The position numbers and the translations under genes are program-made. The notes below the pieces were generated by a model. The model was not told where the DNA came from. It was given only the letters and a program-made list of their open reading frames with translations, and did no database searches. A stretch of 52,787 nt of DNA, from positions 1-52,787 of the forward strand of contig JWZX01002637.1 of the NCBI GenBank assembly GCA_001275005.1. Reading direction: 5' to 3'. Positions 11,691-41,841 of this stretch are shown here, piece after piece (position 1 is the first letter of the stretch; each line of letters opens with the position of its first letter). This DNA comes from Chrysochromulina tobinii. Taxonomy: Eukaryota > Haptophyta > Prymnesiales > Chrysochromulinaceae.

Positions 11691-13067
11691 CTACCTCTTG
11701 CGCTTCCCGCCAGACGGCGCCGCCATCCGGTATGTGAACGTCATCTTGCAGGTGCCAAGTGAGAAGGCCATGCCGTCGGAGAGCTTGACCTGCTCACTCA
11801 CGCGCCGTCCTTCCACATAGGTGCCCGAGGAGGAGCCCAAGTCGAGCAGGTAGCTCTCGCCATCCGGAGAGTGCACAACGGCCGCGTGCTGCCGCGAGAC
11901 CGAATCATCCTTCACCACGTAGTCGACATGCTGGGCCGAGCGCCCAAATGAGGTGCAGCGCGTGCGCAGCGGCAGCACCTCCTCCACGTCGCCGCCCGCG
12001 TCCAGGTGTGCCAAATATGGATTGGACACCGTGTTCGAGCGCACCTCGAGACGGCAGTCGCGCGCAGGCACATCGGCCCACGCAGGTGGCTGCCATTTCT
12101 CGACCTTCTGCGGCTCGAGGCCCGTCACGCGGAAGACTGTCGACTTGAGCGAACCGAAGCGCAGCGTGCTCCCTTCGATGAGCTTCACCGGATCCTCTCC
12201 CACCTTGACCCCCAGCCGCGGCACATGCAGCGTGCGGCCGCTCTCATCGTACCATGTTCCGTGCGCCGAGTCGAGGTCCTGGATGAAGGTGGCGCTCGAC
12301 GAGTTGATGATCACTGCGTGCTGCCGCGAAACCGTTGCGTCCATGACCACCACATCGGCCTGGGCGCCGTCGCGACCGACGAGGAACGTCGGCTGGCTCG
12401 TCAGCATCATGCTGCGCACCATTATCCCGCCCTCGAACGCCTCGAGCCGCGGCCGGTGCATCACAGGCAGCTTCGACCAGTCGGGTGGCCGCCACCGCCG
12501 CGGTGGTGGGCCAGTGGATGTGGACGCCTCATGCTCGGTGACTGCGCTTCTGCCAGCCGCCTCATCCGGATACCGCGCGGCGGTGTTTGGGAAAGCGTCG
12601 CCACCGCCACCTTGTGTGCTGGGATGAGCGGTCGTCTCATCGCCAACGTTGTCGTCAGCACCAGGATAGGGTCCAATGACTGCAGCATCGTCATCCTCGT
12701 CGTCACCATCAGGATAGGGTCCAATGACTGCAGCATCGTCATCCTCGTCGCCACCTTGTGTGCTGGGATGAGCGGTCGTCTCATCGCCAACGTTGTCGTC
12801 AGCACCAGGATAGGGTCCAGTGACTGCAGCATCGTCATCCTCGTCGTCACCATCAGGATAGGGTCCAATGACTGCAGCATCGTCATCCTCGTCGTCACCA
12901 CCAGGATAGGGCCCAACGACAGCAGCTTCGTCATCCTCGTCGTCACCACCAGGATAGGGCCCAACGACAGCAGCATCGTCATCCTCGTCGTCACCACCAG
13001 GATAGGGCCCAACGACAGCAGCTTCGTCGTCACCACTTCCGTCGGAAGACGCCATGCGAGCCACCAT
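11691..13067 (-). CDS. Protein with two FHA domains and an N-terminal acidic repeat
   Basis: This is a 458-residue protein with two forkhead-associated (phosphothreonine-binding) domains. FHA1, about residues 227-318, contains FLVGRDGAQADVV, TVSRQHAVI and LDSAHGTWYDE. FHA2, about 370-450, contains TSFGRSAQHVDYVV, SVSRQHAAVV and LGSSSGTYVEG. Both keep the Gly-Arg, Ser-x-x-His and Gly-Thr residues that define the fold, so both may bind phosphopeptides. Residues 12-140 are a tandem array of GPYPGGDDEDD-type units, strongly acidic. Between repeat and FHA1 is PPDWSKLPV, and between the domains WQPPAWADVP, two related Trp-Pro linkers, as in NIPP1/SNIP1-like nuclear proteins. The C-terminus GGKRKR is a likely nuclear signal. 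A second in-frame ATG at 13055 is an equally plausible start. Confidence 0.87.
   Translation of the reverse strand: MVARMASSDGSGDDEAAVVGPYPGGDDEDDDAAVVGPYPGGDDEDDEAAVVGPYPGGDDEDDDAAVIGPYPDGDDEDDDAAVTGPYPGADDNVGDETTAHPSTQGGDEDDDAAVIGPYPDGDDEDDDAAVIGPYPGADDNVGDETTAHPSTQGGGGDAFPNTAARYPDEAAGRSAVTEHEASTSTGPPPRRWRPPDWSKLPVMHRPRLEAFEGGIMVRSMMLTSQPTFLVGRDGAQADVVVMDATVSRQHAVIINSSSATFIQDLDSAHGTWYDESGRTLHVPRLGVKVGEDPVKLIEGSTLRFGSLKSTVFRVTGLEPQKVEKWQPPAWADVPARDCRLEVRSNTVSNPYLAHLDAGGDVEEVLPLRTRCTSFGRSAQHVDYVVKDDSVSRQHAAVVHSPDGESYLLDLGSSSGTYVEGRRVSEQVKLSDGMAFSLGTCKMTFTYRMAAPSGGKRKR
12655..13036 (-). repeat. Coding minisatellite, 48-base unit
   Basis: The array encodes repeats of 16 residues (GPYPGGDDEDDEAAVV type). 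The last copies (13036-12880) are nearly identical. The distal part alternates with a longer module containing GADDNVGDETTAHPSTQGG, itself present twice. All three minus-strand frames and a plus-strand frame stay open across it, a consequence of the repeat composition. Confidence 0.9.
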
Positions 13068-21599: not shown

Positions 21600-21940
21600 A
21601 GATGTGAGGGAGCGCTCTCAAATGGATTGATATTCATGTACAAGACCAAGTGTACAACATCGGACTGTCGAGGACCCTCAGGAGAGCTGAGTGTCTTGTG
21701 CCCCTCGGAAGTTTTCAAGTTAGTCTTAAAATGTGTGCACGTGTTCACTCCCCGTCTCTTCCGCACAGCCCGACTCACGGCGGCTGCATTGCTCCCAAGA
21801 GGCCGACGCGCCTGGTTGGGGAGCTTTCCGGATAGTCCAAGTTTTCGTGCGGTGTGGTTACATGTACAAACCTGCTTTTTGATGCGCTCGTTAATGGAAA
21901 CCCTGTGACAAACCAAGCCCTTGGGTGGCAGCTCATACAA
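21600..21940. other. Intergenic region
   Basis: A 341-base AT-richer gap between two genes on the plus strand. It probably holds the 3' end of the esterase transcript and the promoter of the following fusion gene. No motif was recognised. Confidence 0.45.
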
Positions 21941-24900
21941 ATGTCGACGGCGGCCATCAGTCTGGTGAGCGACGACGAGGGGGATAGCGCCGGCCTCCCA
22001 GCCGCGACTGCTCCGCCGCCCAAGCAGCCGCCGGCTCGCAAGCGTGCGACGGGATCATGCCCAGCAGCGACGAGCGGCAAGAGCAAGGCGGCGGCCGCAA
22101 TAAGGAAGCGTAAGGTGCGCCGTGTGGTCGCTAGCAGCGACGACGATGACGACGACGGCGGCGGCAGTGACTCACCCGACGACGACTCTGGGTCCAGTTA
22201 CAGTGACGAGGCGGCACGAGCCAAGCCTGCCAAGACAGCACGCCAGGCCGCAATGGCGGCGGCTTCAAAGCAGTTTGCCATCAAGGATGACGACGACGGT
22301 GACATGGTCGAGGCGGATGGAGCTGCAGCACCTGCAGCGATGCCAGGTGCGCCTCTCGCGCCTCTCTCGCCGCACGGCGCGCAGGCGCGAACGTCCAATC
22401 GCAGCAGCTGCCGAGCGGGTGCAAAGACGGCGTTGACGGCCGCGGCGGTCGACGACGACGACGGCGGCGGCTGCGGAACGGCTGAGCCCACCGCCGCCGC
22501 CGCCGCTCCCGCGCCTCGCGCGTCGCCCACCGATGCCGCCGTCAAGGCGTACCAGCGCGCCCGCGCGGCATCGGTCAAGCGGTGCGCTTTCGACCTTCGT
22601 TCGCTCTCGAGCGGCAGCATCAACACGGGGCGAACGATCAAGCCTCTCGCCTCGTGGAGTGGCCTGTGGCCGCCTCTGCGCGAGTTCCTCCAGAACACCA
22701 TCGACCACCTCGAGCTCTTCTCGGCTGGGGACCTCCACCCCGCCCTCACCCTCGAGGTGCGTGACGGTGCTCAAGACGGCGCGGGTGGCTCAGCCACCAC
22801 GATCGCCTTCGTGTGCGATGCTGAGGACGTGTGCGTGCTGCGCGTGCGCGCGGACGAGCTCGTCATCGAGCAGCACCACACGTACGCCCTGCACCCGCGT
22901 GCGCTTGACACGGGCGTCATTGACACGACTAAGGGCGGCGACAAGACCGCTGGAGGCTTCGGCGATGGCTTCAAAACGGCGCTGGTTTCCCTCCTCGCAC
23001 TGCCGCACGGTGCATGCCGCGCGCTCGCGTGGGACTTTTTCTGCGGCGGCCGACACGTGCGCTGGGCCTTTGCGGGCGCGCAGCGCGAGGCCGTTGGCAA
23101 CTTCGCGCGCTCGACCGTTCTCGAGGTCACCATCACGAATGAGGCCCAAGCGGACGCAGAGTGCGCTGGCATCGTTGCTCTCCACCATGCAAGGCAGCGC
23201 CTCAAGAGCATACCACACGCCGTCCGACACGAGGTCGTGCCGACACCTTGCGTGCGCGGCGACAACTTCATGGTGCAAACGTACCGCGTCGACGGGATCG
23301 GTGCCGCATTCCTTTCAGATGTGATCACGCGCTTCCAGGTCTTCTGGAGCGTGCCACGCTCGCAGACGCTCTGCATCGCACGTGGCGACTTCCTCGCTTG
23401 TGCCGAGGAGCTGCCGCCCGTGCTTCCGGCGGCCACGCTCGGCGGCACGGGCGGCGGAAGCTGTGAAGCAGTGAAGAAGCAAAGCCAGCACATGCCATGG
23501 GACTGTTCGAACTGCACGTATAAAAACGTCGCCAGCGCACGCCATTGCGAGATGTGTGACGCGCCACGGCCGGGCGGCGGTCCACCGCCCGAACCCGTGA
23601 TTGAAACGGCGGGCTCGAGCAGTCGACTGCGGCATCCGCAGCCGGGCATCTACATTCGTGGGATCTGGGTGCGCAAACCACAGCTCGAGGGGTCGGTCAT
23701 GTCCTTCCTCGGCAGTATGAACGTGTCTGGACGCGACCGGAACGACGTTGACCATGAGGAGCTCGTTGAGGCTACGTTGCACGTACTCCGTGCCACGACA
23801 CACAGCGCGCTGCGCCTGCGCCTTCTCGAGCCGCTCCGGCAGCCCAGGCTGCCGGACACGTGGCTGACGAGGAGCAGCCCCTTCCTCAACCAGCTGCTCG
23901 AGAAAGCGCGAGAGTTCTTCTTATGCGACGTCTTCAGCGTGCCTCGGGACGCCCTCTTTGTCTCGACGCGGACCACCGACTCCATGGACCAGTTCATCCG
24001 GTGGGCCTCTGCCTTCCTCGCACGCCGCGGCGCGCCGCTGCTCCCCCTCGAGCCCAATGCGAACAAGCACTTGTTCCACGAAGTGTCCGAGGCGGAGCTG
24101 AAAGATCGCTGCGTTCAAGAGCTGCTTCGTGACGCCGAGCAGAACGTCGAGCCTCAGGCCAAGCGGCTGCAGAGTGCCTTTGACAAGCTGCTGCGCGCGT
24201 GTGAGGTCAGCAAGCTCACGGTCCACTTCGGCGGCGAGATTGTCGTCGCGTTCATGCATGGCAACCACGCGTTCGTGCCGTTGCAGCCGCTCTCGCGTCG
24301 GCTGATCTTGTTGGTGCTCAGCGTGGTTCAACGCAAGGTCGGGGTCTATGAGGAGGCTTTCACCCACATGACGCAGGCCATCTTCGAGACGATGGCTGCT
24401 GACGAGGCTGTGGACGAGGCGCAGTTGGACGCTGCGATCTCGCGCGCCAAGATCGTGCAGCGTGAGGCAGCCGCCTTTCTGGGCGGTCAAAAGAATGAAA
24501 TTGAAGCCCAGCAGAAGGCGGAGCAAGAGAGGGCGCTGAAGGAGGCGGAGGCTGCCAAGTTGTTGCGGGCCAAGCGCAAGGCCGCGATGGAGCCTGCGGC
24601 CGTGACCGACCTCACGAGCGACGTCGACGAGGCGCCGCCGCCGCCGGATGCCGCGGGTGGCGGCAAGCGCCGGGGCGTGGGTGGCGGAGGCGGCGGCGGA
24701 GGCGGCGGCGCGGGCTCATCGTCGAGCGGGAACGCCGTCCTGGGCGATCAGCAGGCGCAGCTTGCCGATCAAATCGCACAGGTCAATCGGCTGCGCGGGG
24801 TGATTGGCCATAATGAGGTGCTTCCGGCCTCCGCCTTCTTCAACGATGACGGCAGCTCTTTGACAGCAGACGGCTGCGTGCAGTGTCACTCGACGCTCGT

Positions 24901-25450
24901 GCCTACCGCCGTGTGCGAGGGCGCCGGTGGTGGCCGATTGCATGCGGACCGGGGCTCGGCCTCGTACCTGCTCTCGATGCCACCCGATGCGCAGGCGGCG
25001 CTCCGAGGCATCCGTGAGGCCCTCAACCGCGCAAAGCGGCTCGTCGCGCGCGCGCTGCCCTCGGTGCAGCGTCTGCTCGCCGAGGTGGTGTGCGAGGGGT
25101 ACGACGTGGCTAACACCGGCTACCTCGGCTTCTGCACCCAGCGGCAGATCATCATCAACCTGTGCCCACTGCTCCAACGCGCGCTCGGCGCTCAGCTCGG
25201 CGCTCGTCCGCGCGCCAGCGGCGCTTCCGCGGCTGGGGCTCGCCTGCCTGGCCTGCCCGTCGATCTCGCGCACGAGATGCTGCTCACGCTGCTCCATGAG
25301 CTGGCTCACATGCTCGAGCGCGGAGGTGGGCATGGTCCGGGGTGGCGTGCCACGCAGGATCGGCTGACGCAGGCGGTGATGGCCCACGCATTCGCGACCA
25401 TAGGTGACGATGGCGTGGCGCTCTGCTGCAAGTGCTGCGACGCAGAGTGA
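21941..25450 (+). CDS. GHKL-ATPase-like / RanBP2 zinc finger / SprT-WLM-like metalloprotease fusion with two SIM-like motifs
   Basis: The protein has 1,169 residues from the ATG at 21941, and the codons upstream give only a GTG start. In order: ISLVSDDEGD at residues 6-15 fits a SUMO-interacting motif. Residues 45-230 are acidic, Lys-rich and disordered. About 240-460 resembles a GHKL (Bergerat) ATPase, with N-box LREFLQNTID (Glu248, Asn252) and G2 box TKGGDKTAGGFGDGFK (330-345). The DxGxG box is degenerate (RADELVIEQ). A RanBP2-type finger follows at 520-540 (W-D-C-x2-C-x10-C-x2-C). Helical and coiled regions lead to a second SIM-like motif, VTDLTSDVDE (888-897), and a poly-Gly linker. Near 979 is CVQCH. 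The C-terminus has HELAH (1119-1123) and His1131 in GGGHGPGW, as in SprT/WLM zinc proteases, ending CCKCC. I infer a nuclear SUMO/DNA-linked protease. Confidence 0.85.
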   Translation: MSTAAISLVSDDEGDSAGLPAATAPPPKQPPARKRATGSCPAATSGKSKAAAAIRKRKVRRVVASSDDDDDDGGGSDSPDDDSGSSYSDEAARAKPAKTARQAAMAAASKQFAIKDDDDGDMVEADGAAAPAAMPGAPLAPLSPHGAQARTSNRSSCRAGAKTALTAAAVDDDDGGGCGTAEPTAAAAAPAPRASPTDAAVKAYQRARAASVKRCAFDLRSLSSGSINTGRTIKPLASWSGLWPPLREFLQNTIDHLELFSAGDLHPALTLEVRDGAQDGAGGSATTIAFVCDAEDVCVLRVRADELVIEQHHTYALHPRALDTGVIDTTKGGDKTAGGFGDGFKTALVSLLALPHGACRALAWDFFCGGRHVRWAFAGAQREAVGNFARSTVLEVTITNEAQADAECAGIVALHHARQRLKSIPHAVRHEVVPTPCVRGDNFMVQTYRVDGIGAAFLSDVITRFQVFWSVPRSQTLCIARGDFLACAEELPPVLPAATLGGTGGGSCEAVKKQSQHMPWDCSNCTYKNVASARHCEMCDAPRPGGGPPPEPVIETAGSSSRLRHPQPGIYIRGIWVRKPQLEGSVMSFLGSMNVSGRDRNDVDHEELVEATLHVLRATTHSALRLRLLEPLRQPRLPDTWLTRSSPFLNQLLEKAREFFLCDVFSVPRDALFVSTRTTDSMDQFIRWASAFLARRGAPLLPLEPNANKHLFHEVSEAELKDRCVQELLRDAEQNVEPQAKRLQSAFDKLLRACEVSKLTVHFGGEIVVAFMHGNHAFVPLQPLSRRLILLVLSVVQRKVGVYEEAFTHMTQAIFETMAADEAVDEAQLDAAISRAKIVQREAAAFLGGQKNEIEAQQKAEQERALKEAEAAKLLRAKRKAAMEPAAVTDLTSDVDEAPPPPDAAGGGKRRGVGGGGGGGGGGAGSSSSGNAVLGDQQAQLADQIAQVNRLRGVIGHNEVLPASAFFNDDGSSLTADGCVQCHSTLVPTAVCEGAGGGRLHADRGSASYLLSMPPDAQAALRGIREALNRAKRLVARALPSVQRLLAEVVCEGYDVANTGYLGFCTQRQIIINLCPLLQRALGAQLGARPRASGASAAGARLPGLPVDLAHEMLLTLLHELAHMLERGGGHGPGWRATQDRLTQAVMAHAFATIGDDGVALCCKCCDAE

Positions 25451-27305: not shown

Positions 27306-30300
27306 CTACTCCTCGTCCTCGTCCTCAACGTCGTCCTCAACGTCGTCCTCAACGTCGTCCTCATCCTCGACTTCCTCCTCCTCGTCTCCTTCTCGATCTT
27401 CGTCTTCCCCCTCCCCCTCAGCCTCCTCCTCGTCGTCGTCGTCCTCCTCCTCCTCAACCTCCATGTCATCCTCGCCCTCGTCCTCGTCCTCGCCTTCGCC
27501 CTCGCCCTCCTCCTCCTCCTCGCCCTCCTCCTCCTCGCCCTCCTCCTCCTCGCCCTCCTCCTCCACCGCGCCATCTTCATCCTCGCCCTCCGCCTCCACC
27601 CCGCCATCTACATCGTCCACCTCTGCGCCCGCGTCGCTGCCAACTCGCCCGAGCCTCTCGAGCCGCCGGCGCGCTCGCGTGGCGCGCTCAAACGCCACAA
27701 CGGCTCTGTCGGGGCCGGCGGCCCCGCCCTCCTCAGCGCCCGTTCTCGTCAGCTTCGCGCACGCCGCATCCACATCACCGCCGAATGCATGCAGAGCCGT
27801 CAACGCACGCTCCAAGGCACTCGGCTTGAGCTGGCCGCCAGGCGCCGTGCAGCCGGGGTCCATGAGCATCGCCGCACGCTCCAGAAAGCCATCGAGTTTG
27901 GCGTCCGTGTGGACGGAACCGCCTAGCCCACGTGGCGTCCAGAGCAACTCGTCACCACGCTCCTCGCTCATCCGCTGCCCAGAGTCCCCCGGCATGGCCG
28001 CTTGAAAGTCGTCGCCCACGCGTGACTCCTCGTGCACCCAGATGTCCGTGTCCATGATGCGCCTCGCAACCTGGATCTTGTTGCGACTCTGAAGGCTGTC
28101 CATGAGATCCTGGTCCCGTTCCCATTGTTCGCGCTCCTTCAACTTGCGCTCGTGCTCAATCACACTCTGCACGCGCTTGCGCTGCATCTCTATCTCGAGC
28201 ACGCCCCGACCGAACATGCGCTCCTGCTCCGACAGCAGAGGCTGCACGTACTTACCTGGCGTCTTGAGCGTGCGACCCGTCCGCCCCGAGACACGCGCCA
28301 CCTCTACCTCCAGCAGGGGATCGAAGCCGTCCGCCCTCCACCTCCGCTCCCCGCCCCCTGAGGTGCCCGCCTCCCGGACTGCCGAGATGGGCTTCGAGGG
28401 CTTCGAGGGCTTGAGGATCGATCTCGACGGCTTGAGCTGCGATCTCGAGGGCTTGAGGAGCGATCTCGATGCCTCGAGCTGCGATCTCGACGGCTTGAGC
28501 TGCTTCGAGGGCTTGAGGAGATGCTTGTTGAACTTCTTCTCCTCTTTTGGAGTCCATCCCGTCAGCTTCTTCTTGTCCCAAGGCTTCATTTGCTGCTTCG
28601 GTGACGGCGAAAGTCGTCGGGGAAGTGCCTGCGGAACCGCCTTTGCGCTCGCTCGAGCTGCGCTCGGGACCACTGTCACCGAGGCGCGTGCTGCTGCCCC
28701 CGGCGTGGCGGTAGGTGCTGGAGGGGCCAGGCCCGCAATCGAGCGACCAGCGCCCACTGGATCTGGTGATTCCTCAAAGAAGCAATCGATGCCGCAGCGC
28801 ACGCAGTTGCTGCATCGCCCCTCCGAGTCGTCGCACGGGCGGCATGGCGCCTTCATGTGACGGCAGGCCATGCATGCGCCCGCTTGCAGCTCGGGCGCAT
28901 GGGCGCTTGGCTTGGGGCGCTTTGCTGCCGGGCCAGCGGGCTCGCCTTCCTTCGGGCGCAAGATGCTCTCCGCGTCCTTGCAGAGTCGCCCTACGTCCCG
29001 GTCGTCGCAGTCCCATAGCTCAGGCGCCGTCAACTTGGACGCGCAGAGCGCCGCAAGGTGAGCCAGCGCCACGGCCGCCTCAACTGCCGTCGGGTAACGC
29101 CCCAGCAGGATGCTGCGAGCGCTTACGTCCTCGCTGGATGTTGAGGATGGCTTCGCATGCATCTTGCGACGGGCGGGCGTCGTCGTCATTCCCGAGACGA
29201 CCGCACAGCACTCGACGTGCGCGTTACGGATGGCCTTCGAGCCGTGGACGAAACACTTGCCACAGTGTGGGCATGGTGCCTGCTCGTTCGGGGATTTAGA
29301 GCCGCCGTCGCCCCCGCCATCGCCGCTCCCACCGCCACTTCCGAGCCGGCTGCTCGATCGCTCGCCGGCAGGCTTGAGCTCCGCGGCTGCCGTCTTCGCT
29401 GCCGAGGAGCCGGGCTCGTCGGAGGCCTCGTCGAGGCGCACGAAGGCCAGGAACGAACGCAGAACGTTGGAGTACTGCACGCCGTAATAGCCCGTCTTCG
29501 ACCCAGGATCCATGCGCAGCTCGAAACCATCAACATGCGAGGCAAGCTTGTCCGGGCCACGGAAACCGTCAGCAAGCGTGTCAAGCTCACCCGAGGCACG
29601 TGATGGCTGCAGCAGCGACCGATGCAGACACCCCTTCGAGGTAGCTTCGTCACGCATCGACGGCATCGGAGCATTTGAGGTCAGTTGAAAGGATTTGCGC
29701 GCGGTGGGAGCGCCGGTCATCAACGATTGGAGCTGCGGCTGCGTGAAGTCCTCCACTTGCAATCGCCGCTTTCTGACTTCAGATCGTTCCTTGCGCTCCC
29801 CAGGCTCTGGCACGTGCGGAAGTTGATGCTGCGTTGGCGGCGGCGCCCTTGCCGAAGGCTGTTCGAAAAGCTTGAAGCTGACTGAGCCTGAACCAACGAC
29901 AAAAGAACGAACGCCGCCAAATGAGACTGCCGCGGGCGCACGCGCTGGAGGTGGCACGTTTGTAGACTGGCTTGAACGTGACTCGAGTTCGCCATGTGCG
30001 AATGGCTTGAAAGTGACCGTGCCAGATTCCATGACGAAAGAACCAACGTGTCCTAGTGTGACTTCGGTGGCTGCGGCCACAAGCTCTCGTGGCCGTGCCT
30101 TGGATGGCGCCGGAGGTCGCGGCGCTGGTGGCAGCATGCTCGTTGGCGCCGGAGGTCGCGGCGCTGGTGGCAGCATGCTCGTTGGCGCCGGAGGTCGCGG
30201 CGCTGGTGGCAGCATGCTCGTTGGCGCCGGAGGTCGCGGCGCTGGTGGCAGCATGCTCGTTGGCGCCGGAGGTCGCGGCGCTGGTGGCAGCATGCTGGTT

Positions 30301-33300
30301 GGCGCCGGAGGTCGCGGCGCTGGTGGCAGCATGCTGGTTGGCGCCGGAGCTCGCGGCGCTGGTGGCAGCTTGCTCGTTGGCTCTTGAGGCTGCCATGAGA
30401 GCGGCATGCTCAATGGCTCTTGAGGCTGCCATGAGAGCGGCATGCTCAATGGCAATGAAGATGACGGCCGTTTGATGGCGATGTGCTTCAGGTAACACTT
30501 GGAAGCCTCCTCCTGCGTCTCGAACATACCCAAGCAGCGAGCTGTGCCGTTCTCGCTTACATGTGCCGCGTACATGTCCTTAACTTTCGTCACGCCCTTG
30601 AAGAAGGTCTCCGAAACGGCTAGGTCTGCCACTACCGCTGCGGCCGCCAACGGACGAGCCTGCCAATGTTCGTTGACGCTGATGCGCGGCATGATCGGCT
30701 GATGGACCTCTGAACTCGCGGCCGCGGCCTCCACCGTCGCCATGTGCCCCGAAAGAACCTGCCGCGAATAATACGCCGCGAAGCTTTCAGCCGCTGGCGG
30801 CACGCTTGGCGCACTTGTAGGCAGCTTCATCATGAATACGTTGGGTTCCGAGGCGGCGGGAAGTGTCACGGCGCCGTACTGGGCGAGCGTCTGCTTCTCC
30901 AACTTCTTGCGCTCCTCCCCCGCCGCGGCCGGGCTGGCTTCATCCGCTTCAAATGACGCCCTCGCGTAGCATGAGAGCGCCTCTTCTAATGTCTCTTTGC
31001 AAGAAAGCGCCTCGTCTAATGTCTCGAAGTTGAAGCCTGTCTTACACGTACTTGACGGCACGAGCTCGAGCCCCTGGGGCGCCGCCGCGGGCGCCCTGGC
31101 CTCGTCTGCGGTGAGCACGGGCTTCTCCTGCGGCAACTGCTCGCTCGACCGCAAGGAAAGGTCCAGCTCAACCGCAGCGAGCGGACGCTGCGCATCAATG
31201 TCCAAAGCGCTGTGTTGAGCACCCCCAACGTCCAAGGGCTGCTGCGCTTCGGTCCCCACTATGTGAGGCTCCTGCTTCTCCTTGAACGAGAGCGCCAGAT
31301 GAGGCACCAGACAAGGCTCTTGGGGATCGGCGGCGAGAGGCAACATCAAGGTCGGCCGAACTGCTGGCGTGAGCGCTTCCGCTGGCGTGGGTGCCGCAGC
31401 CGCTACGTGTGCCGCAGCTGGCACGAACACTGCAGCTGATGCACGTGCTGGCGCGAACACTGCAGCTGATGCAGGTGCAGCATCTGATGCGCAGGGAGAC
31501 ACGGGTAACGATGTCAATTCCGAGACCACGAGCCCCTTCTCGATTGATGCCCCTGCTGCGCCATCATAGATCACCACGCCTTCGTCACTGGCATGCTGAC
31601 CTCTTGGCATGCGCGACATCGGCTCTAACATCGGCTCCTGGATAGAGATGTCGAACTCTCGAGCTGCCGGAGTCTGGTCGAGTCTGGTCGAGTCTGGTCG
31701 AGTCGGGTCGAGGCCGATGCACGTGGCGCCCGTCACGGCGCCATCCGTCACTCGATCTGGCGTCGGAATCGATTTGGCGACGTCGGTCGCTGCCGGTGCC
31801 GGTGCCGGCACCGCAAAGTGGCGCCGCCAAATCGAGTGGCGGACGGCTTCATACGACGGGGCTGCCAATGGCTTGGCTTTCTCCACGTGTTTGGCGACTT
31901 CCTCTGCGAGCGGGCTGTCCCGTAGGACGGCCGAGAGCACTCGGCCTTCCACCGTGAACACTCGACCTTTCAGGATGCGCGCGTCAAACTTGGGCCCTAG
32001 AAGCGGCGCCGTGGCGCTGAGCGCACCCTGCACCTCCGCTCGCACCTGCTGATGGCGGGCCACTTCCGGTGCTGTGGCCATCGTCGCGTCTTCTCCACGT
32101 CCAATGGCCGGTGCTGCGGCCATCGTCGCGTCTTCTCCACGTCCAATGGTCTCCTGCACCGCCTTCGTCAGAAGAGAGCGTTCGCCGCCGCCCATGCTCT
32201 GCACCGCTGCCCCCTGCACCGTACTCGTCTGCGGCCGCGATGGCACATAAGAAGAAGCATCACTGTAATGCTTCTTCTTATCACTGCTATGCTTCTTCAT
32301 ATGTGCCCCTAGTCCCATCAGACCTTTGCACAACTTGCCGCATTCGCGGCATGCAATGTAGCCGTTTTCTTCGCAGCGGCGCCCTCCTGGACGTTGGGCA
32401 AGGGTGTCCTCCTCAGCATCCTCGTCAGCGTCTTCCTCGGCGCCTTCCTTGGCATCATCTGCCTCCGATTCATCCTTGTCGTCCTCGTCGTCCTCGTCGA
32501 CCTCATCTTCATTCTCCTCCCCCTCGTCCTCGTCCTCGTCCTCGTCCTTCTCCTCCTCCTCCTCCTCCCCCCACTCCTCCTCCTCCTCCCCCTCGTCCTC
32601 CTCCCCGTCCAATGTTGCCTTCGTGTCGCATATCTTGGGCCGCTTGGCCTGAGGCCCGCTTCTCCAACTGCCCGGCCCGGCGCTTCTCCAGCTGCCCCCT
32701 TCCAAGGTCTCAAGCCTCTGAGCGATCTCGAGAGCCTCTTCCAGCACCGCCATTGCCTCGGCCTCCTTAGAGGCCTCGTCCTGAGCATTGCCCGGCTCAA
32801 CGGCCTCCGCCGCGGCCTCCATAGGGCCTCCACGCCAATGCACTGGCGCCTCTTGCACCTCGACCGTCTCATTTGTGGGATTGGGTTGAACCATCTGCCT
32901 GCACACGCGGTGGATGCAGCGCTGCTTCTTGACGCCAGGGCCGCCAAACTTCCGCTTGTCCTTGCAGTTGGCACACTTGCCACAGTTGGGCCGAAGGCAC
33001 GCAGGGCACTCTCGGCATGCGGTTGCATTAACCTTTGCACCAGACCGAGCGGAGTGCCCTTCATTTCCTGACCAGACAAAGCGTGGCGGTGGCGCCTGCG
33101 GCGCTTGCGGCGGTCGCGGGGACGTTCGCGCTCTTGCCGGTGGAGGTGGCCCTCTTGGACCTCCAGCTGCTTTACCAGCTGCTGCCTCTCGAGGCGTTGG
33201 TCGCGGTTCGAGGGCATGGTCTTGGCTGCGCTCGTGAACCTCTCGCTTGTGATCTCCATGCCCGGGAAAGGAAGGGAAGCGACACGCCCTGAGCTCGCAA

Positions 33301-33713
33301 GACTGCTTCTTGATATTTGGTCCGCCGAACTTGCCCTTGTCGAGACAATTCACGCACTCGCCGCAATCGGGCTGCTTGCACTTATCGCACGCGTTACACC
33401 GTTTTCCGGACCACGTCCGCATCTTGGGAAACTTCGCCCGCTTCACGAGGGATGCGTTGCTGGATTGATCGAAACTGGTGTTGGATGGCGATCGAGCAAC
33501 CATGTGGAGTGGGTCGAGCTCCTCGTGATTCTCGTCCCTCGCTTTTTCTCTGCGGCGCGCGCGATCGAGTCTCATCTTGCACGCTACGACCGAACGCCCG
33601 TTTCCGACGGCCCGCGCCGTTGCTGTCCAGTCAAGACCAGCCCCGATCGCGTCCAGCAGTCGCTCTTCTTCGTCCGCGCTCCAGCGCGGCATTGGGATGT
33701 CCTGGGTCCACAT
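27306..33713 (-). CDS. Giant chromatin protein: SANT-like, two CXXC fingers, C2H2, AP2 domains, Zn2Cys6-like cluster, acidic tails
   Basis: The protein has 2,135 residues from the ATG at 33713, in a single open frame. An in-frame ATG at 33830 would add 39 residues. Near residues 5-50 is a SANT/Myb-like helix set (PRWSADEEERLLDAIGAGL). CXXC finger 1 (about 103-146) has CNACDKCKQPDCGECVNC and KFGGPNIKKQSC. Finger 2 (about 233-273) has CRECPACLRPNCGKCANC and KFGGPGVKKQRC. The KFGG/KQ residues contact unmethylated CpG in MLL, CFP1 and KDM2. An acidic block follows (361-438), then a C2H2 finger near 450-470. One AP2 domain lies at about 1033-1075, and a second appears split (1401-1425 and 1530-1555) with a C2H2-like finger inside. 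A Zn2Cys6-like cluster lies at about 1608-1648. The last 100 residues are almost all Asp/Glu. I infer a CpG-directed chromatin regulator. Confidence 0.85.
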   Translation of the reverse strand: MWTQDIPMPRWSADEEERLLDAIGAGLDWTATARAVGNGRSVVACKMRLDRARRREKARDENHEELDPLHMVARSPSNTSFDQSSNASLVKRAKFPKMRTWSGKRCNACDKCKQPDCGECVNCLDKGKFGGPNIKKQSCELRACRFPSFPGHGDHKREVHERSQDHALEPRPTPREAAAGKAAGGPRGPPPPARARTSPRPPQAPQAPPPRFVWSGNEGHSARSGAKVNATACRECPACLRPNCGKCANCKDKRKFGGPGVKKQRCIHRVCRQMVQPNPTNETVEVQEAPVHWRGGPMEAAAEAVEPGNAQDEASKEAEAMAVLEEALEIAQRLETLEGGSWRSAGPGSWRSGPQAKRPKICDTKATLDGEEDEGEEEEEWGEEEEEEKDEDEDEDEGEENEDEVDEDDEDDKDESEADDAKEGAEEDADEDAEEDTLAQRPGGRRCEENGYIACRECGKLCKGLMGLGAHMKKHSSDKKKHYSDASSYVPSRPQTSTVQGAAVQSMGGGERSLLTKAVQETIGRGEDATMAAAPAIGRGEDATMATAPEVARHQQVRAEVQGALSATAPLLGPKFDARILKGRVFTVEGRVLSAVLRDSPLAEEVAKHVEKAKPLAAPSYEAVRHSIWRRHFAVPAPAPAATDVAKSIPTPDRVTDGAVTGATCIGLDPTRPDSTRLDQTPAAREFDISIQEPMLEPMSRMPRGQHASDEGVVIYDGAAGASIEKGLVVSELTSLPVSPCASDAAPASAAVFAPARASAAVFVPAAAHVAAAAPTPAEALTPAVRPTLMLPLAADPQEPCLVPHLALSFKEKQEPHIVGTEAQQPLDVGGAQHSALDIDAQRPLAAVELDLSLRSSEQLPQEKPVLTADEARAPAAAPQGLELVPSSTCKTGFNFETLDEALSCKETLEEALSCYARASFEADEASPAAAGEERKKLEKQTLAQYGAVTLPAASEPNVFMMKLPTSAPSVPPAAESFAAYYSRQVLSGHMATVEAAAASSEVHQPIMPRISVNEHWQARPLAAAAVVADLAVSETFFKGVTKVKDMYAAHVSENGTARCLGMFETQEEASKCYLKHIAIKRPSSSLPLSMPLSWQPQEPLSMPLSWQPQEPTSKLPPAPRAPAPTSMLPPAPRPPAPTSMLPPAPRPPAPTSMLPPAPRPPAPTSMLPPAPRPPAPTSMLPPAPRPPAPTSMLPPAPRPPAPSKARPRELVAAATEVTLGHVGSFVMESGTVTFKPFAHGELESRSSQSTNVPPPARAPAAVSFGGVRSFVVGSGSVSFKLFEQPSARAPPPTQHQLPHVPEPGERKERSEVRKRRLQVEDFTQPQLQSLMTGAPTARKSFQLTSNAPMPSMRDEATSKGCLHRSLLQPSRASGELDTLADGFRGPDKLASHVDGFELRMDPGSKTGYYGVQYSNVLRSFLAFVRLDEASDEPGSSAAKTAAAELKPAGERSSSRLGSGGGSGDGGGDGGSKSPNEQAPCPHCGKCFVHGSKAIRNAHVECCAVVSGMTTTPARRKMHAKPSSTSSEDVSARSILLGRYPTAVEAAVALAHLAALCASKLTAPELWDCDDRDVGRLCKDAESILRPKEGEPAGPAAKRPKPSAHAPELQAGACMACRHMKAPCRPCDDSEGRCSNCVRCGIDCFFEESPDPVGAGRSIAGLAPPAPTATPGAAARASVTVVPSAARASAKAVPQALPRRLSPSPKQQMKPWDKKKLTGWTPKEEKKFNKHLLKPSKQLKPSRSQLEASRSLLKPSRSQLKPSRSILKPSKPSKPISAVREAGTSGGGERRWRADGFDPLLEVEVARVSGRTGRTLKTPGKYVQPLLSEQERMFGRGVLEIEMQRKRVQSVIEHERKLKEREQWERDQDLMDSLQSRNKIQVARRIMDTDIWVHEESRVGDDFQAAMPGDSGQRMSEERGDELLWTPRGLGGSVHTDAKLDGFLERAAMLMDPGCTAPGGQLKPSALERALTALHAFGGDVDAACAKLTRTGAEEGGAAGPDRAVVAFERATRARRRLERLGRVGSDAGAEVDDVDGGVEAEGEDEDGAVEEEGEEEEGEEEEGEEEEEGEGEGEDEDEGEDDMEVEEEEDDDDEEEAEGEGEDEDREGDEEEEVEDEDDVEDDVEDDVEDEDEE
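30107..30385 (-). repeat. Coding minisatellite, 39-base unit, about seven copies
   Basis: The unit encodes TSMLPPAPRPPAP inside the large CXXC/AP2 protein. Copies differ mainly at one codon (CTCGTT versus CTGGTT). Immediately beside it (30386-30456) is a separate 36-base duplication encoding PLSMPLSWQPQE twice. Confidence 0.9.
32065..32150 (-). repeat. Coding tandem duplication in the CXXC/AP2 gene
   Basis: Two nearly identical copies encode IGRGEDATMAAAPA and IGRGEDATMATAPE. The underlying DNA word GCCATCGTCGCGTCTTCTCC occurs in each. Confidence 0.85.
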
Positions 33714-34201
33714 TGCGTTTCTCGCTCTGCGACACCGCGTGACGCTTCTTGAGAAAGGGTCACGCTTCTTGCAAAGCCCACAGCCTCGTGTTCCTAACAT
33801 TTTTGCATGCGTGTATCCGATACACGTCATCTTTCGAACGACAAAAACACCGGATTTTGGTTCTCTCGCCCCGCGGCAGTGTTACTAGTGTTTTCGCACA
33901 TTCACGTTAAAATACATCAGCTTAACACTCCACGCCAAGCACTGTGCACGGGGGTGTCGCCGCCTGTCTTGGCATACGATTGTTTTTACTTACTGTAGCT
34001 TACTTGTGACGCCGTCATGGTCGCCGTCGTCGCGCCTTGCACGCTCAACACTCTGCGCGTGCACTCTCTCTCCCCCTCTCTCATGCTGGCTCTATCGAAG
34101 TCATCATGACCACTCACGAGTCCAACTCGTGCTCGGTCTCAAATGCAGCTGGGATGCCCTGGGCTCTGAGACTGGTGGAACGTCGACGTCACTTCTCACG
34201 C
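33714..34201. other. Intergenic region
   Basis: About 490 bases upstream of the large chromatin gene and downstream of the Gln-rich gene, both on the minus strand. The frame of the chromatin gene stays open to 33830. Beyond it the DNA is AT-richer and shows nothing recognisable. Confidence 0.45.
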
Positions 34202-37434: not shown

Positions 37435-40400
37435 ATGCCGCCGCGCACGCGGAGGCCGGACGCTCAGCAGCAGCGGCTTCTTGACCACATCGATGCAAAT
37501 GCAACGGAGATGCATCCAAAAGCAGCTTCTGCAACTCTGCCCGGTCAACCGCCAGCCCAACCAAAGAAGACGCCACAGCGAGCCTCGGCTCCCAGCGGAG
37601 CCAAACCCCGGCCACCTGGCAAGGCGAGGTTCAATGATCTCGTCGTCGAGGTGCCCGCGACGTCGCATGCCCACGGCGGCGACGAGGGCGGCGGCGAGGA
37701 TGTGTACGAGGATTTTGAGCGTGGGGATGGCGTGCAAGCGAACAACCACCACAGCGAGGACGATGTGGACGAGTCCGCCGTGCGGAACTCCTGGATCACG
37801 GCACCATGCAATTGCTGCTTGGCCCTCTGGGCGTCGCTTGGCGAGATGATCGAGGGCGGCGCTGAGCAGATCGTGGGGCTGCTCTTGTTCCCGCTCAGTC
37901 TCCTGACCTACTTCTACTTTGCCGTCTCTGACGGCGCTCTCGACCCGATGACGTGGATTGAAGGTTCGACCTGCGCGTGGCTCGGATTGATCGGTGCGGG
38001 ATGTGAAGGCGCAGGCGGCGGCGACGACGGCGACGCCGCGGGCGCGCCTCCGCCTCCGCCCTGGCACCCCAGCTGGTCAGAGCTAGCCAACGCCGCGGGC
38101 GCGACGTACGCGATGCTCCATCCCGTCCTGTACGTCGCGCTCGACATTGGACTGCTGCTGGGCATTTCGCTGCTCGTGCTCTTCGAGGCGGACCTGTACC
38201 GCTGCTACCGCGACTGTCGTAGCCGCCGGTACGAAGAGGTCGACGAGATGGACGAGGCGGAGCAAGCCGGGGCGAGTCTGTCGGCCTCGGCCAGCACCAT
38301 TCAAAAGTATGGCAAAGCTGCGGTGATGGCCGCGGCCTTTTCGAAGCCGGTGCGCATGATGCGCGAGAGGACGCTGCGGAACGAGCTGCACAAGGCCATT
38401 GACACGAGCGAGGAGCTCTACCTGCAGAAGATGGTTCGGACTCAGAGCGACGAGGACGACGAGGACGACGAGCAACTCGCGCAGCAGATGGAGGTGCAAA
38501 GGGCGCGACAATCGCAGCTGCAGGCGGCGCTCTCGCGTAACCACTCGTTCAAGACCTCGCCGGAGCGCTTCCTCAAGCGGACCAGGACGTTCAAGGGCTC
38601 GTGGTGCGACAAGATGAGACACAGCTCCTTCATTCAAGTCTTCCGCCGCTCGCTCAACGGTCTCGTTAACGTGTGGCTCTACTTTGCGGATCTGATCTCC
38701 GACATCGAGGTCACCGTGCTCCTGTTCTCATCGAGTCAATGGGCCTGGGCGAGCATCGCGTCTGTCTTCTTGTTCCTCCAATTCTTCGTCGTGTGGCTGC
38801 GCGTGCTCCCGTACCTCCACGACACCTTCGGGCCAGAGTCCGGATTGTACCGCTTCTTTGTCGTCCTTGGTTTCCCTTTGGGCATGCTCGGACTCGACTG
38901 CCTCATGTTCCTCGAGCCGTTTGGGCTGCTGCCCGTCGTGCCCTGCCTCACGGACCAGATGCGCCAGTTCATCCCGGCGTACAAGGCGACCCGCATCATC
39001 GCCGAGGTGCTCATCGAGAGCTTGCCGCAGATGATCCTCCAATCCTACATAATGGTCACGGTCTTTTCTCGCGTGCACGCGGGCATGGCGACCGCGACGG
39101 AGCTCAGCCTGCTCAACGCGTCCATCGACGGAGCGCCCTTCTCTGAGATCTTGCCGCGCTCGATTGCGATCAGCACCATCACGTCGCTCAAGGCGTGGAT
39201 CGAGCTCGTTCAGTCGGCGCGCGAAGCTGGCATCACGGTACGCGAAAAGGCCAACCAACTTCTGAAAGTTGGGTACGGTCTCCCGCTCGATGCTCTGAAG
39301 AGGGGCGCCATCTACGAGTGGTCTTGCACATACCACATTTCCGAGGTCGAAGTGCCGCCCCTGCTCGATGCGCTCATCAAGAACTCGAGCCTCACGCGCC
39401 TCAACCTGTCCATCTCCGGCTTCGAGTGGAACGGTCCGGAGGCGAGCAAGGCGTTCAGCGGCGCGCCGCTCATTGAGGCGTTGGCTGAGAGCGCCTCCGC
39501 GCTCGCCGAGTTGCAATGCCTTGTCGTGAGCCAGGAGAGCGGCTATCCCATCCCAGTGGGCAAGCTGCGCAAGGGCGGCGAGATCGCCAAGGACGCGCTG
39601 CACGAGACGCGCCTGCTGCGACCGGGGGGTCCTCGATTGCTTGAGGTCCTGCTGATCGGCGACTTACTGCGCAAGGATCGCTCCAAGTCCCTCGTCGACC
39701 AGCATAAGGTGGAGGAGTCCGCCAGCAAGGTGGTCGCACTCATCGAGCGTGCCAGGCGCGGCGAGGTGAACGTGGACGCGTGGCAGACGCAGGTGGTCGA
39801 GCTGATCGTCGCAGGGGAGCTGCGCCGTGCACACCTGAAGGGTCTCTTCACAGTGCGTGTGCTGCACGATGTCGGCTTTGAGCCGAAGCAGCTGCTGGCC
39901 CTCGGCCACCGGCCAATCGAACTCAAGGAGGCCGGGTACAGCGCCAAGGACCTGATGGACAAGTGCGACATCAAGCTGCCCGCTCTCAAGGCGCTCGGCT
40001 ACAAGGTCAAAGATCTCAAGGCGGCAGATGCGACCGTGCACGAGCTTAAGGCGCTCGGGTTTGGCGCCTCCGCCCTCAAGGACGAAGCCGGATATGGACT
40101 GCTCGATCTCAAGGACGCGAGCTTCACGCTCGAAGAGCTCAAGGCGGCGGGCTTCGGGCCGTCGGAGCTCAAACTTGTGGCCGGGTACAAGGCGCCGGAG
40201 CTGCGCCTTGCCGGCTTTACCGCGAGCGAGCTGCGCAGCACCAAAGCTTTTGTGGGTCCGGAGCTGCGGGAGGCGGGCTACTCGGCGACGGAGCTCAGGG
40301 CCGCTGGCTATGACTGCAAGTTTGTGATCAAGGCGGGCTACAACACGATCGAGGCGACCGAGGCGGGCTTCACGCTCCCGCAGCTGGTGGCGGCGGGATG

Positions 40401-41841
40401 CGAATGCAAGCCGCTCAAGGAGGCAGGCTGGAAGGCGCCCGAGATGCGAAAGGCCGGCTTCCAGCTCAACCACCTCGATTGGGCGGGTTACGATGCGCAA
40501 GAGCTGCAGGCCGCCGGGTTTGACGCGGCGCTGCTCAAAGAGAGCGGCATCGGGCTGCTCAAGCTGAAAAAGGCGGGAACGCCCATCGCCAAGATCCGTG
40601 AGGCCGGTTTCAAAGCGGACCGTCTCAAGCTGGAGGGATACAAGGCGGGCGAGCTGGCAAAGGGCGGATACTCTGCCAAGGAGCTACGTGGCTTCCGCGA
40701 CCAGCTGTACGCCGAGGGTGAGGGCGCGTACGCGGGGTACACGGCCAAGGAGATGCATGACTCGCAAGTGGAATTCTCCGCCAAGGAGCTCATAGGAGCG
40801 GGATACACATGCGCCGAGCTCCGGGACGGTGGGTACACGGCCGGTGAGTTGAAAGCCAAAGGCGCTTCGTTAGCCGAGATGCGGGGTGGCGGCTACACCT
40901 GCGCAGAGCTCCTCGAGGGTGGCTTCACCGTTGAGCAGCTCAAGATTGTCGCGAGCGCGAAGGAGATGACGGAGGCGGGCGTCAGCCCGAAGGTGCTGCG
41001 CGCGCTGGGGTACAGCGTCAACTTGCTGCGCAAGGCCGGGGTGACCGCAGCGGCGCTGCAGGCGGCAGGTTGCACCAACGACGACTTGTTCAAGGGTGGT
41101 TTCGACGCCAAGGAGCTGTGGGAGCTGGGCCTGCGTGTGCGCGAGCTCAAGGGCATCGGCGTGAGCGCGGCCGAATTGCGCCAGCTCGGCTGCAAGGCAA
41201 AGCTCCTCGGCGAGGTCGGTTTCACAGCAGCCGAGTTGATCAAGGGGGGCTTCCACCCGCGCGAGGTGGAGGCGGTGCAGACGAGCGCTGACGGCGTGAC
41301 TTCGGTCAGCGCACTGCGTGCCAAGGGCTACAGTGCGGCCGAGTTGCGAATGATCGGCTTCCAGGTGGCGGAGATGCGCAGCGGGGGGTACACGTGCCGT
41401 CAGGTGCGCGAGGGCGGGTTCACGCAAGAGGAGCTCCTCGAGGGTGGCTTCCGACAGCGCAGCGTCGATGCCACCGATGGGCGCCCCGTGTCTACGCTGC
41501 GCGTGGAGGGCAGGTATTACGCCAAGGACCTCGCTGCCATCGGCTTCACCACACAGGAAATGTTCGAGGGTGGTTACAGCACCAAGGAGCTCACCGAGAT
41601 TGGCGTGGGCGTTGCCGAGCTCAAGGCCGCGGGCGCCAGCGCCGGGGCACTGCACGAGGCGGGAGTCGCCGGTAGGGATCTCAAAGCCGCGGGCTACACG
41701 TTGCGTCAGCTGCGAGAGGGCGGGTTCGCGTGGAAAGAGCTCGTCATCTTCTTGCGCAGCACCCACGCCGAGCTGGTGGAAGCTGGCTTTGCGGGCCTCG
41801 ACCCGAAGGATATGATCTTCAAGCAGTATCGACCGGAGTAA
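37435..41841 (+). CDS. XK-related-like membrane protein with a long Gly-Tyr/Glu-Leu repeat tail
   Basis: This is a 1,468-residue protein in a single exon. Residues 1-120 are basic then acidic and disordered. Membrane segments start near 145 (QIVGLLLFPLSLLTYFYFAV) and 230 (VLYVALDIGLLLGISLLVLF). An XK-related-type region spans about 406-560, with LYFADLISDIEVTVLLF, FLQFFVVWLRVLPYL and the family signature IIAEVLIESLPQMILQSYIM. XK-related proteins include lipid scramblases. A leucine-rich-repeat-like fragment lies near 650-700 (SLTRLNLSISGFEWNG). From about 800 to 1,450 there are roughly 60 short units of the form AGYSAKELR-x-x-GFT. This tail is regular enough to form a solenoid and faces the same side as the loop after the last membrane helix. 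Such repeat tails recur in algal proteins, but their role is unknown to me. Confidence 0.83.
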   Translation: MPPRTRRPDAQQQRLLDHIDANATEMHPKAASATLPGQPPAQPKKTPQRASAPSGAKPRPPGKARFNDLVVEVPATSHAHGGDEGGGEDVYEDFERGDGVQANNHHSEDDVDESAVRNSWITAPCNCCLALWASLGEMIEGGAEQIVGLLLFPLSLLTYFYFAVSDGALDPMTWIEGSTCAWLGLIGAGCEGAGGGDDGDAAGAPPPPPWHPSWSELANAAGATYAMLHPVLYVALDIGLLLGISLLVLFEADLYRCYRDCRSRRYEEVDEMDEAEQAGASLSASASTIQKYGKAAVMAAAFSKPVRMMRERTLRNELHKAIDTSEELYLQKMVRTQSDEDDEDDEQLAQQMEVQRARQSQLQAALSRNHSFKTSPERFLKRTRTFKGSWCDKMRHSSFIQVFRRSLNGLVNVWLYFADLISDIEVTVLLFSSSQWAWASIASVFLFLQFFVVWLRVLPYLHDTFGPESGLYRFFVVLGFPLGMLGLDCLMFLEPFGLLPVVPCLTDQMRQFIPAYKATRIIAEVLIESLPQMILQSYIMVTVFSRVHAGMATATELSLLNASIDGAPFSEILPRSIAISTITSLKAWIELVQSAREAGITVREKANQLLKVGYGLPLDALKRGAIYEWSCTYHISEVEVPPLLDALIKNSSLTRLNLSISGFEWNGPEASKAFSGAPLIEALAESASALAELQCLVVSQESGYPIPVGKLRKGGEIAKDALHETRLLRPGGPRLLEVLLIGDLLRKDRSKSLVDQHKVEESASKVVALIERARRGEVNVDAWQTQVVELIVAGELRRAHLKGLFTVRVLHDVGFEPKQLLALGHRPIELKEAGYSAKDLMDKCDIKLPALKALGYKVKDLKAADATVHELKALGFGASALKDEAGYGLLDLKDASFTLEELKAAGFGPSELKLVAGYKAPELRLAGFTASELRSTKAFVGPELREAGYSATELRAAGYDCKFVIKAGYNTIEATEAGFTLPQLVAAGCECKPLKEAGWKAPEMRKAGFQLNHLDWAGYDAQELQAAGFDAALLKESGIGLLKLKKAGTPIAKIREAGFKADRLKLEGYKAGELAKGGYSAKELRGFRDQLYAEGEGAYAGYTAKEMHDSQVEFSAKELIGAGYTCAELRDGGYTAGELKAKGASLAEMRGGGYTCAELLEGGFTVEQLKIVASAKEMTEAGVSPKVLRALGYSVNLLRKAGVTAAALQAAGCTNDDLFKGGFDAKELWELGLRVRELKGIGVSAAELRQLGCKAKLLGEVGFTAAELIKGGFHPREVEAVQTSADGVTSVSALRAKGYSAAELRMIGFQVAEMRSGGYTCRQVREGGFTQEELLEGGFRQRSVDATDGRPVSTLRVEGRYYAKDLAAIGFTTQEMFEGGYSTKELTEIGVGVAELKAAGASAGALHEAGVAGRDLKAAGYTLRQLREGGFAWKELVIFLRSTHAELVEAGFAGLDPKDMIFKQYRPE

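What the first reader, a model, noticed from the sequence alone, without database searches (positions are those of the whole stretch)
21941..25450. Candidate new DNA-protein-crosslink or SUMO-linked protease: GHKL ATPase, RanBP2 finger and SprT/WLM-like protease in one chain
Seen in sequence: an N-terminal SIM-like ISLVSDDEGD, a GHKL-like N-box (LREFLQNTID) and G2 box (GGFGDGFK), a perfect RanBP2 zinc finger (Cys522, 525, 536, 539), a second SIM-like VTDLTSDVDE, and HELAH with a third His seven residues on. Established: Wss1 (WLM protease with SIMs), Spartan (SprT with UBZ4) and GCNA (SprT with SIMs) remove protein crosslinks from DNA, and MORC-type GHKL ATPases clamp DNA. Inference: this protein could be an ATP-gated clamp with its own SUMO-directed protease. 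I know no described protein with this order of domains, but I could not search.
Basis: partly seen in the sequence, partly recalled or inferred. Interest (0 to 1): 0.9.

Follow-up and report, generated by a model that had tools for sequence, protein, structure and literature searches.

The report
SUMO-reading protease with built-in ATPase clamp
Haptophytes and diatoms carry a conserved, unstudied protein that appears to join a SUMO-reading tail, an ATP-driven clamp of the Hsp90/MORC kind and a protease of the kind that clears proteins stuck on DNA.

The parts
21941..25450 (+). whole coding sequence, 1169 aa, single frame
   Evidence: P0003 (90% identical) starts at the same residue
21956..21985 (+). 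N-terminal SIM-like motif, residues 6-15 (ISLVSDDEGD)
   Evidence: SIM pattern in first 60 residues in 30 of 54 proteins, 2.9 expected from shuffles
22622..23449 (+). GHKL (Bergerat) ATPase-like domain, about residues 228-503
22676..22705 (+). N-box LREFLQNTID (E248 predicted base, N252 predicted Mg ligand)
   Evidence: E248, N252, D255 in 43 of 43
22871..22882 (+). place where DxGxG (G1) is expected: Q311-H-H-T314
   Evidence: Q311 and T314 in 43 of 43
22949..22975 (+). G2 box AGGFGDGFK, end of the ATP lid
   Evidence: 57 of 57
23495..23575 (+). RanBP2/NZF zinc finger, residues 519-545, insertion in a disordered loop
   Evidence: PF00641 2.6e-8; 1 of 43; pLDDT <50 at model 299-355 = residues 503-559
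23633..23860 (+). S5/transducer domain, about residues 565-640, with GRDRN loop (R598, R600, N601 invariant)
   Evidence: matches extend to model 434 = residue 638
23858..24481 (+). mostly helical middle region, about residues 640-847, function unknown
   Evidence: AF2 block means mostly above 90; W641 and W688 invariant
24542..24733 (+). flexible linker, about residues 868-931
   Evidence: pLDDT <50 at model 666-727
24602..24631 (+). second SIM-like motif VTDLTSDVDE, residues 888-897
   Evidence: [VIL].?DL[TS] in the linker 18 of 40 vs 2.06 expected, four of the 18 look like a helix start; the general SIM pattern is not enriched there
24896..25402 (+). Wss1/SPRTN-like zincin domain, residues 986-1154
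25295..25333 (+). zinc site HELAH-x7-H, residues 1119-1131
   Evidence: three His in 40 of 40 members with letters there, Glu in 39 of 40; 3 of 43 have gaps

Best explanation
It is a SUMO-directed metalloprotease, presumably nuclear, that carries its own ATP-gated clamp. The acidic N-terminal tail with its SIM (and a second one in the linker in some members) brings it to SUMO-modified chromatin proteins. The GHKL-transducer module binds nucleotide, dimerises through the lid and the transducer loop (GRDRN, probable gamma-phosphate sensor), and closes round DNA or the bound substrate. The Wss1/SPRTN-type zincin, on a flexible linker of 60 or more residues, then cuts the held protein; hydrolysis opens the clamp. 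The likeliest job is removal of proteins crosslinked or tightly bound to DNA. Shown here: one chain, both folds (as predicted models), conserved motifs, SIM enrichment in the tail, SUMO exons in the genome. Inferred: nuclear place, nucleotide binding, dimerisation, DNA binding, SUMO binding, proteolysis, substrate.
Against: No DxGxG: the position of the adenine-binding Asp is Gln in 43 of 43, so ATP use is uncertain. Foldseek gave no PDB match at E <= 0.001 for either model; its first rows for the long model were plant ABA receptors. Profile-profile with small WLM and SprT alignments was inconclusive (3.8% and 5.4%, while an unrelated GHKL control gave 6.0%). The general SIM pattern is not enriched in the linker (10 of 43 vs 12.2). 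14 of 57 family proteins do not match the zincin motif, one (P0044) by loss of the catalytic Glu. C. tobinii already has SprT-like and four WLM matches elsewhere, so crosslink repair may be covered. No DNA-binding domain was identified. No expression or genetic data.
Confidence: 0.45

Rival explanations
1. SUMO-directed chromatin regulator or silencing factor (MORC-like in role): the clamp compacts or marks chromatin of transposons or viruses and the protease trims SUMO-modified chromatin proteins; crosslinks are not the main substrate.
For: Same GHKL-transducer fold as MORC2/3/4 and SMCHD1; SIMs; one relative (P0032) has an FHA domain, by eye also a Tudor-like stretch, and no protease; the genome has other SprT-like and WLM proteins.
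Against: No CW finger in the Pfam list of P0001; the zincin is closest to Wss1 and SPRTN; nearest sequence kin found for the ATPase module is a phage family.
Confidence: 0.25
2. The GHKL part is a pseudo-ATPase: a dimerisation scaffold without an ATP cycle, and the protein is simply a SUMO-targeted protease.
For: G1 Asp absent in 43 of 43; the nine phage relatives aligned also lack it.
Against: E248, N252, K345, the G2 glycines and R598/R600/N601 are invariant in 43 of 43, hard to explain without nucleotide.
Confidence: 0.15
3. Protein-remodelling protease: an Hsp90-like module holds or unfolds clients for the zincin, unrelated to DNA.
For: The highest VIA rows are Hsp90 and TRAP1.
Against: TopoVI-B, MORC and gyrase rows are within about 1 of them in Z, so no preference for Hsp90; the SIM-bearing tail and Wss1/SPRTN-like protease point to the nucleus.
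Confidence: 0.1
4. Artefact: chance motifs in a long GC-rich frame, or two fused genes.
For: The GC-rich window gives 95 frames of 150 aa or more.
Against: Same order in 43 of 57 family proteins, four of them with a transcriptome source.
Confidence: 0.02

Closest known systems
Wss1 (WLM metalloprotease, yeast)
   Different: WLM Pfam matches only 2 of 43 members at E <= 1; Wss1 partners with Cdc48 (PMC9019546, passages) rather than carrying a GHKL module
SPRTN / GCNA (SprT metalloproteases)
   Different: Pfam listed no HMG box or UBZ for P0001; extra GHKL-transducer module
MORC / SMCHD1 / Hsp90 / TopoVI-B GHKL ATPases
   Different: No DxGxG; no CW finger listed; fused to a protease
Phage GHKL-like family phrog_6077 (e.g. 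Pseudoalteromonas phage H101 AKO60960.1) and RIIA
   Same: Profile-profile 96.6% over 231 columns; same lack of DxGxG and a similar R-D-R loop; viral Foldseek prob 1.00 (H101) and 0.99 (RIIA of Aeromonas phage 44RR2.8t)
   Different: The H101 protein is 372 aa without protease or SIM; function unknown
RanBP2/NZF fingers (YAF2, NPL4)
   Same: C. tobinii finger matches PF00641; YAF2 2d9g 8.2e-5, NPL4 1nj3 0.0028
   Different: Absent from the other 42 aligned members

Membership tests
GHKL superfamily (fold) | Bergerat fold followed by S5/transducer domain | tested here: met
GHKL superfamily (motifs) | N-box ExxxN | tested here: met
   57 of 57
GHKL superfamily (motifs) | G2 box with following Lys | tested here: met
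   AGGFGDGFK 57 of 57
Canonical GHKL ATPase | G1 box DxGxG | tested here: not met
   Q311xxT314 in 43 of 43; so called a GHKL-fold relative with an altered pocket, not a canonical GHKL ATPase
Wss1/WLM proteases | WLM fold | tested here: met
Wss1/WLM proteases | match to the WLM sequence profile | tested here: not met
   2 of 43 at E <= 1, best 0.063; hhalign 3.8%
SprT/SPRTN/GCNA | SprT-like profile over cut-off | tested here: inconclusive
   22 of 43 at E <= 1, best 4.8e-4; P0001 14.2 bits against a cut-off of 25.6; bit scores of the other members not shown
HExxH zincin | HExxH plus third zinc His | tested here: met
   His triad 40 of 40, Glu 39 of 40, 3 of 43 gapped
SUMO-targeted protein | SIM with acidic flank | tested here: met
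   30 of 54 vs 2.9 by shuffle in the N-terminal 60 residues; rows are related, so not independent
SUMO-targeted protein | binds SUMO | not testable with these tools
   needs a binding assay
MORC | CW zinc finger | tested here: not met
   Pfam lists 3 families for P0001, no CW; none among the 25 of 28 families shown for the 43 members
GCNA | C2C2 finger and two-helix HMG box | tested here: inconclusive
   no such match in the Pfam list of P0001; whether Pfam models would catch these non-canonical forms was not checked
SPRTN | UBZ4, PIP box, SHP box | tested here: inconclusive
   no UBZ in the Pfam list of P0001; PIP and SHP boxes not looked for
DNA-protein-crosslink protease (function) | DNA-dependent cleavage of crosslinked protein | not testable with these tools
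   biochemistry needed
phrog_6077 (phage) | match to the family profile | tested here: met
   P0016 1.1e-5, P0042 0.017, P0001 0.041, none for P0007 (4 tried); hhalign 96.6% and 95.8%

The most novel reading that the evidence does not exclude
A new class of DNA-protein-crosslink protease in marine algae that need not rely on Cdc48/p97: it reads SUMO, clamps DNA or substrate with its own ATP-gated GHKL module using a non-canonical (Gln-based) nucleotide pocket shared in kind with phage modules, and cuts with a Wss1-like zincin in the same chain.
Probability: 0.3. Interest if true: 0.9.

Novelty: new variant of a known kind. Interest (0 to 1): 0.72.

Why it matters
How broad-specificity crosslink proteases are confined to their substrates is an open question; those described in the passages seen lean on Cdc48/p97, ubiquitin, SUMO or DNA structure. 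A protease with a clamp and a SUMO reader in one chain would be a self-contained test case. It would also link a widespread, mostly unnamed phage GHKL family to a eukaryotic enzyme, in haptophytes and diatoms.

Tried and rejected
Chance or fused frame: rejected by 43 of 57 family proteins with the same order. RanBP2 finger as a core element: rejected (1 of 43); as an unspliced GT-AG intron: by eye the DNA at its edges does not fit one. Viral or prokaryotic origin of the whole protein: three scans of viral contigs and one of prokaryote genomes confirmed no relative, but each scan used only two to six short peptide patterns; tblastn of P0016 against phages gave 4 records, all at E about 1 or more. 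A third protein search, with the ATPase half (A3), returned 35 proteins at E <= 1, none worse than 1.9e-34, so no distant intermediate; its 24 new proteins (P0059-P0082) were not aligned or counted. Sequence-profile searches of the PDB gave no E under 0.05 for the family or either half; the best for the C-terminal half was proabylysin at the HExxH. NCBIfam matched 0 of 4 proteins tried. Searches of the own genome with HATPase_c, HATPase_c_3, SprT-like and WLM do not list this gene, so those family models miss it. Profile-profile of the C-terminal domain with WLM and SprT sequences of the same genome was inconclusive (3.8% and 5.4%; column-shuffled controls 0.0-0.3%, GHKL control 6.0%). A protease beside the phage H101 gene: no HExxH-x5-22-H frame over 80 codons in the 50 kb looked at. 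Foldseek without VIA put plant ABA receptors first for the long model and selecase/abylysin for the C-terminal one; VIA is a second look at Foldseek's candidates, so folds not listed are not excluded. Literature: GHKL with SprT, 2 papers, passages seen, neither describing a fusion; WLM with GHKL, 0 papers; in wider searches none of the papers listed showed it in title or start of abstract (3 of 3, 20 of 308, 12 of 12, 12 of 13, 8 of 13). One of these was opened for the word Bergerat: only a reference. Most subscription papers and all preprints are missing from the library.

Full report
What is there. The window is contig C1482 of a 53.15-Mb genome; the database copy of the protein is named Ctob_001464 of Chrysochromulina tobinii. 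The frame 21941-25450 (+) is open for 1169 codons from ATG, with a stop in frame at 21833. Each motif of the finding is at the stated place.

The deposited model differs at both ends. P0002 (961 aa) lacks residues 1 to about 202, with the SIM, and removes residues 1130-1155 as a 78-base stretch with GT-AG edges, which takes out the third zinc His and the conserved HGPxWR. P0003 and others keep both parts, so I use the continuous frame. RNA would settle it.

Family. A search with residues 205-760 returned 43 proteins among 7992 scored candidates, one of them the deposited copy itself. The other 42 plus the window protein form alignment A1. A second search with A1 returned 44 proteins among 7987, 14 of them new. 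A third, with the ATPase half, returned 35, of which 24 new ones were not used further. Of 57 proteins (P0001 and P0003-P0058), 57 have REXXQNXXD, 57 AGGFGDGFK, 51 [GS]R[DE]RN and 43 the full HExxHx7HxxxWR. The 14 without it: P0044 (HHIVH), P0032, P0038 and P0043 (gaps there), P0050 (C-terminus looks garbled), and nine chains of 375-634 aa. The first query did not contain the zincin, so its conservation is independent of how the family was collected; N-box and G2 counts are partly circular.

SUMO link. A SIM pattern in the first 60 residues is present in 30 of 54 proteins (58 looked at, P0002 among them; four tails too short), 2.9 expected from shuffles. In the linker the same pattern is not enriched (10 of 43, 12.2 expected); a [VIL].?DL[TS] pattern, chosen after seeing sequences, is (18 of 40, 2.06 expected), but four of the 18 look like a helix start, leaving 14. 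Rows are related, so these are not independent counts. The genome has SUMO-like exons.

RanBP2 finger. W-x-C-x2-C-x10-C-x2-C, over Pfam's cut-off, nearest by sequence in the PDB to YAF2, with RanBP2 and NPL4 further down, in a disordered loop before the transducer strands. P0003 and P0004, 90 and 87% identical overall, lack it. It may add ubiquitin reading in this species; that is inference.

Company in the genome. The same genome has SprT-like matches at C2116 and C2107 (HEMCHAA type) and four WLM matches. So the window gene is an addition to, not a substitute for, such enzymes.

How it most likely works. The chain of inference is: SIM enrichment, therefore SUMO recruitment; GHKL-transducer fold with invariant N-box, G2 and transducer loop, therefore a nucleotide-gated dimer; Wss1/SPRTN-like zincin on a flexible tether, therefore cleavage of a held protein. 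I put 0.9 on the architecture and 0.45 on the full reading. Rivals are a silencing role (0.25), a dead ATPase scaffold (0.15) and a non-DNA chaperone-protease (0.1).

Known or new. Wss1 is described as working with Cdc48 (PMC9019546, passages). I found no paper with WLM and GHKL together and two with GHKL and SprT, neither describing a fusion in the passages seen. I rate it a new variant of a known kind: both halves belong to known folds; the combination, the Gln in the pocket and the phage kinship are new as far as the searched library goes.

Noticed in passing
window 21941-25450 versus deposited model P0002: The deposited gene model misses about 202 N-terminal residues and splices out the third zinc His as a 78-base intron that relatives do not support.
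   Followed up: partly
phage locus L016:37697-38815; 95 phage records (25 listed): phrog_6077 is a widespread phage GHKL-transducer family, mostly 'hypothetical protein' in the rows listed, that lacks DxGxG.
   Followed up: partly
P0032 (eukprot g1201.t1): A relative with an FHA domain and, by eye, a Tudor-like stretch in front of the GHKL module and no protease.
   Followed up: no
P0044: Catalytic Glu of HExxH replaced by His (HHIVH): possible inactive member.
   Followed up: no
window 27306-33830 (-): 2173-aa frame with two CXXC zinc-finger stretches and an ELM2 match just over its cut-off: a large chromatin-type protein nearby.
   Followed up: no
window 37435-41841 (+): 1468-aa frame with 11 decapeptide-repeat stretches (PF25296, 2e-144).
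   Followed up: no
window 11691-13067 (-): Frame with two FHA stretches.
   Followed up: no
C-terminal tail of P0001 and of several relatives (P0005, P0009, P0014, P0016, P0019): Chains end in a CxC, CxCC or CxxC tail that could be a remnant zinc site.
   Followed up: no
G000 C2107 (loci L010, L011): SprT-like match split over two frames, with two TGA in one stretch: intron or frameshift.
   Followed up: no
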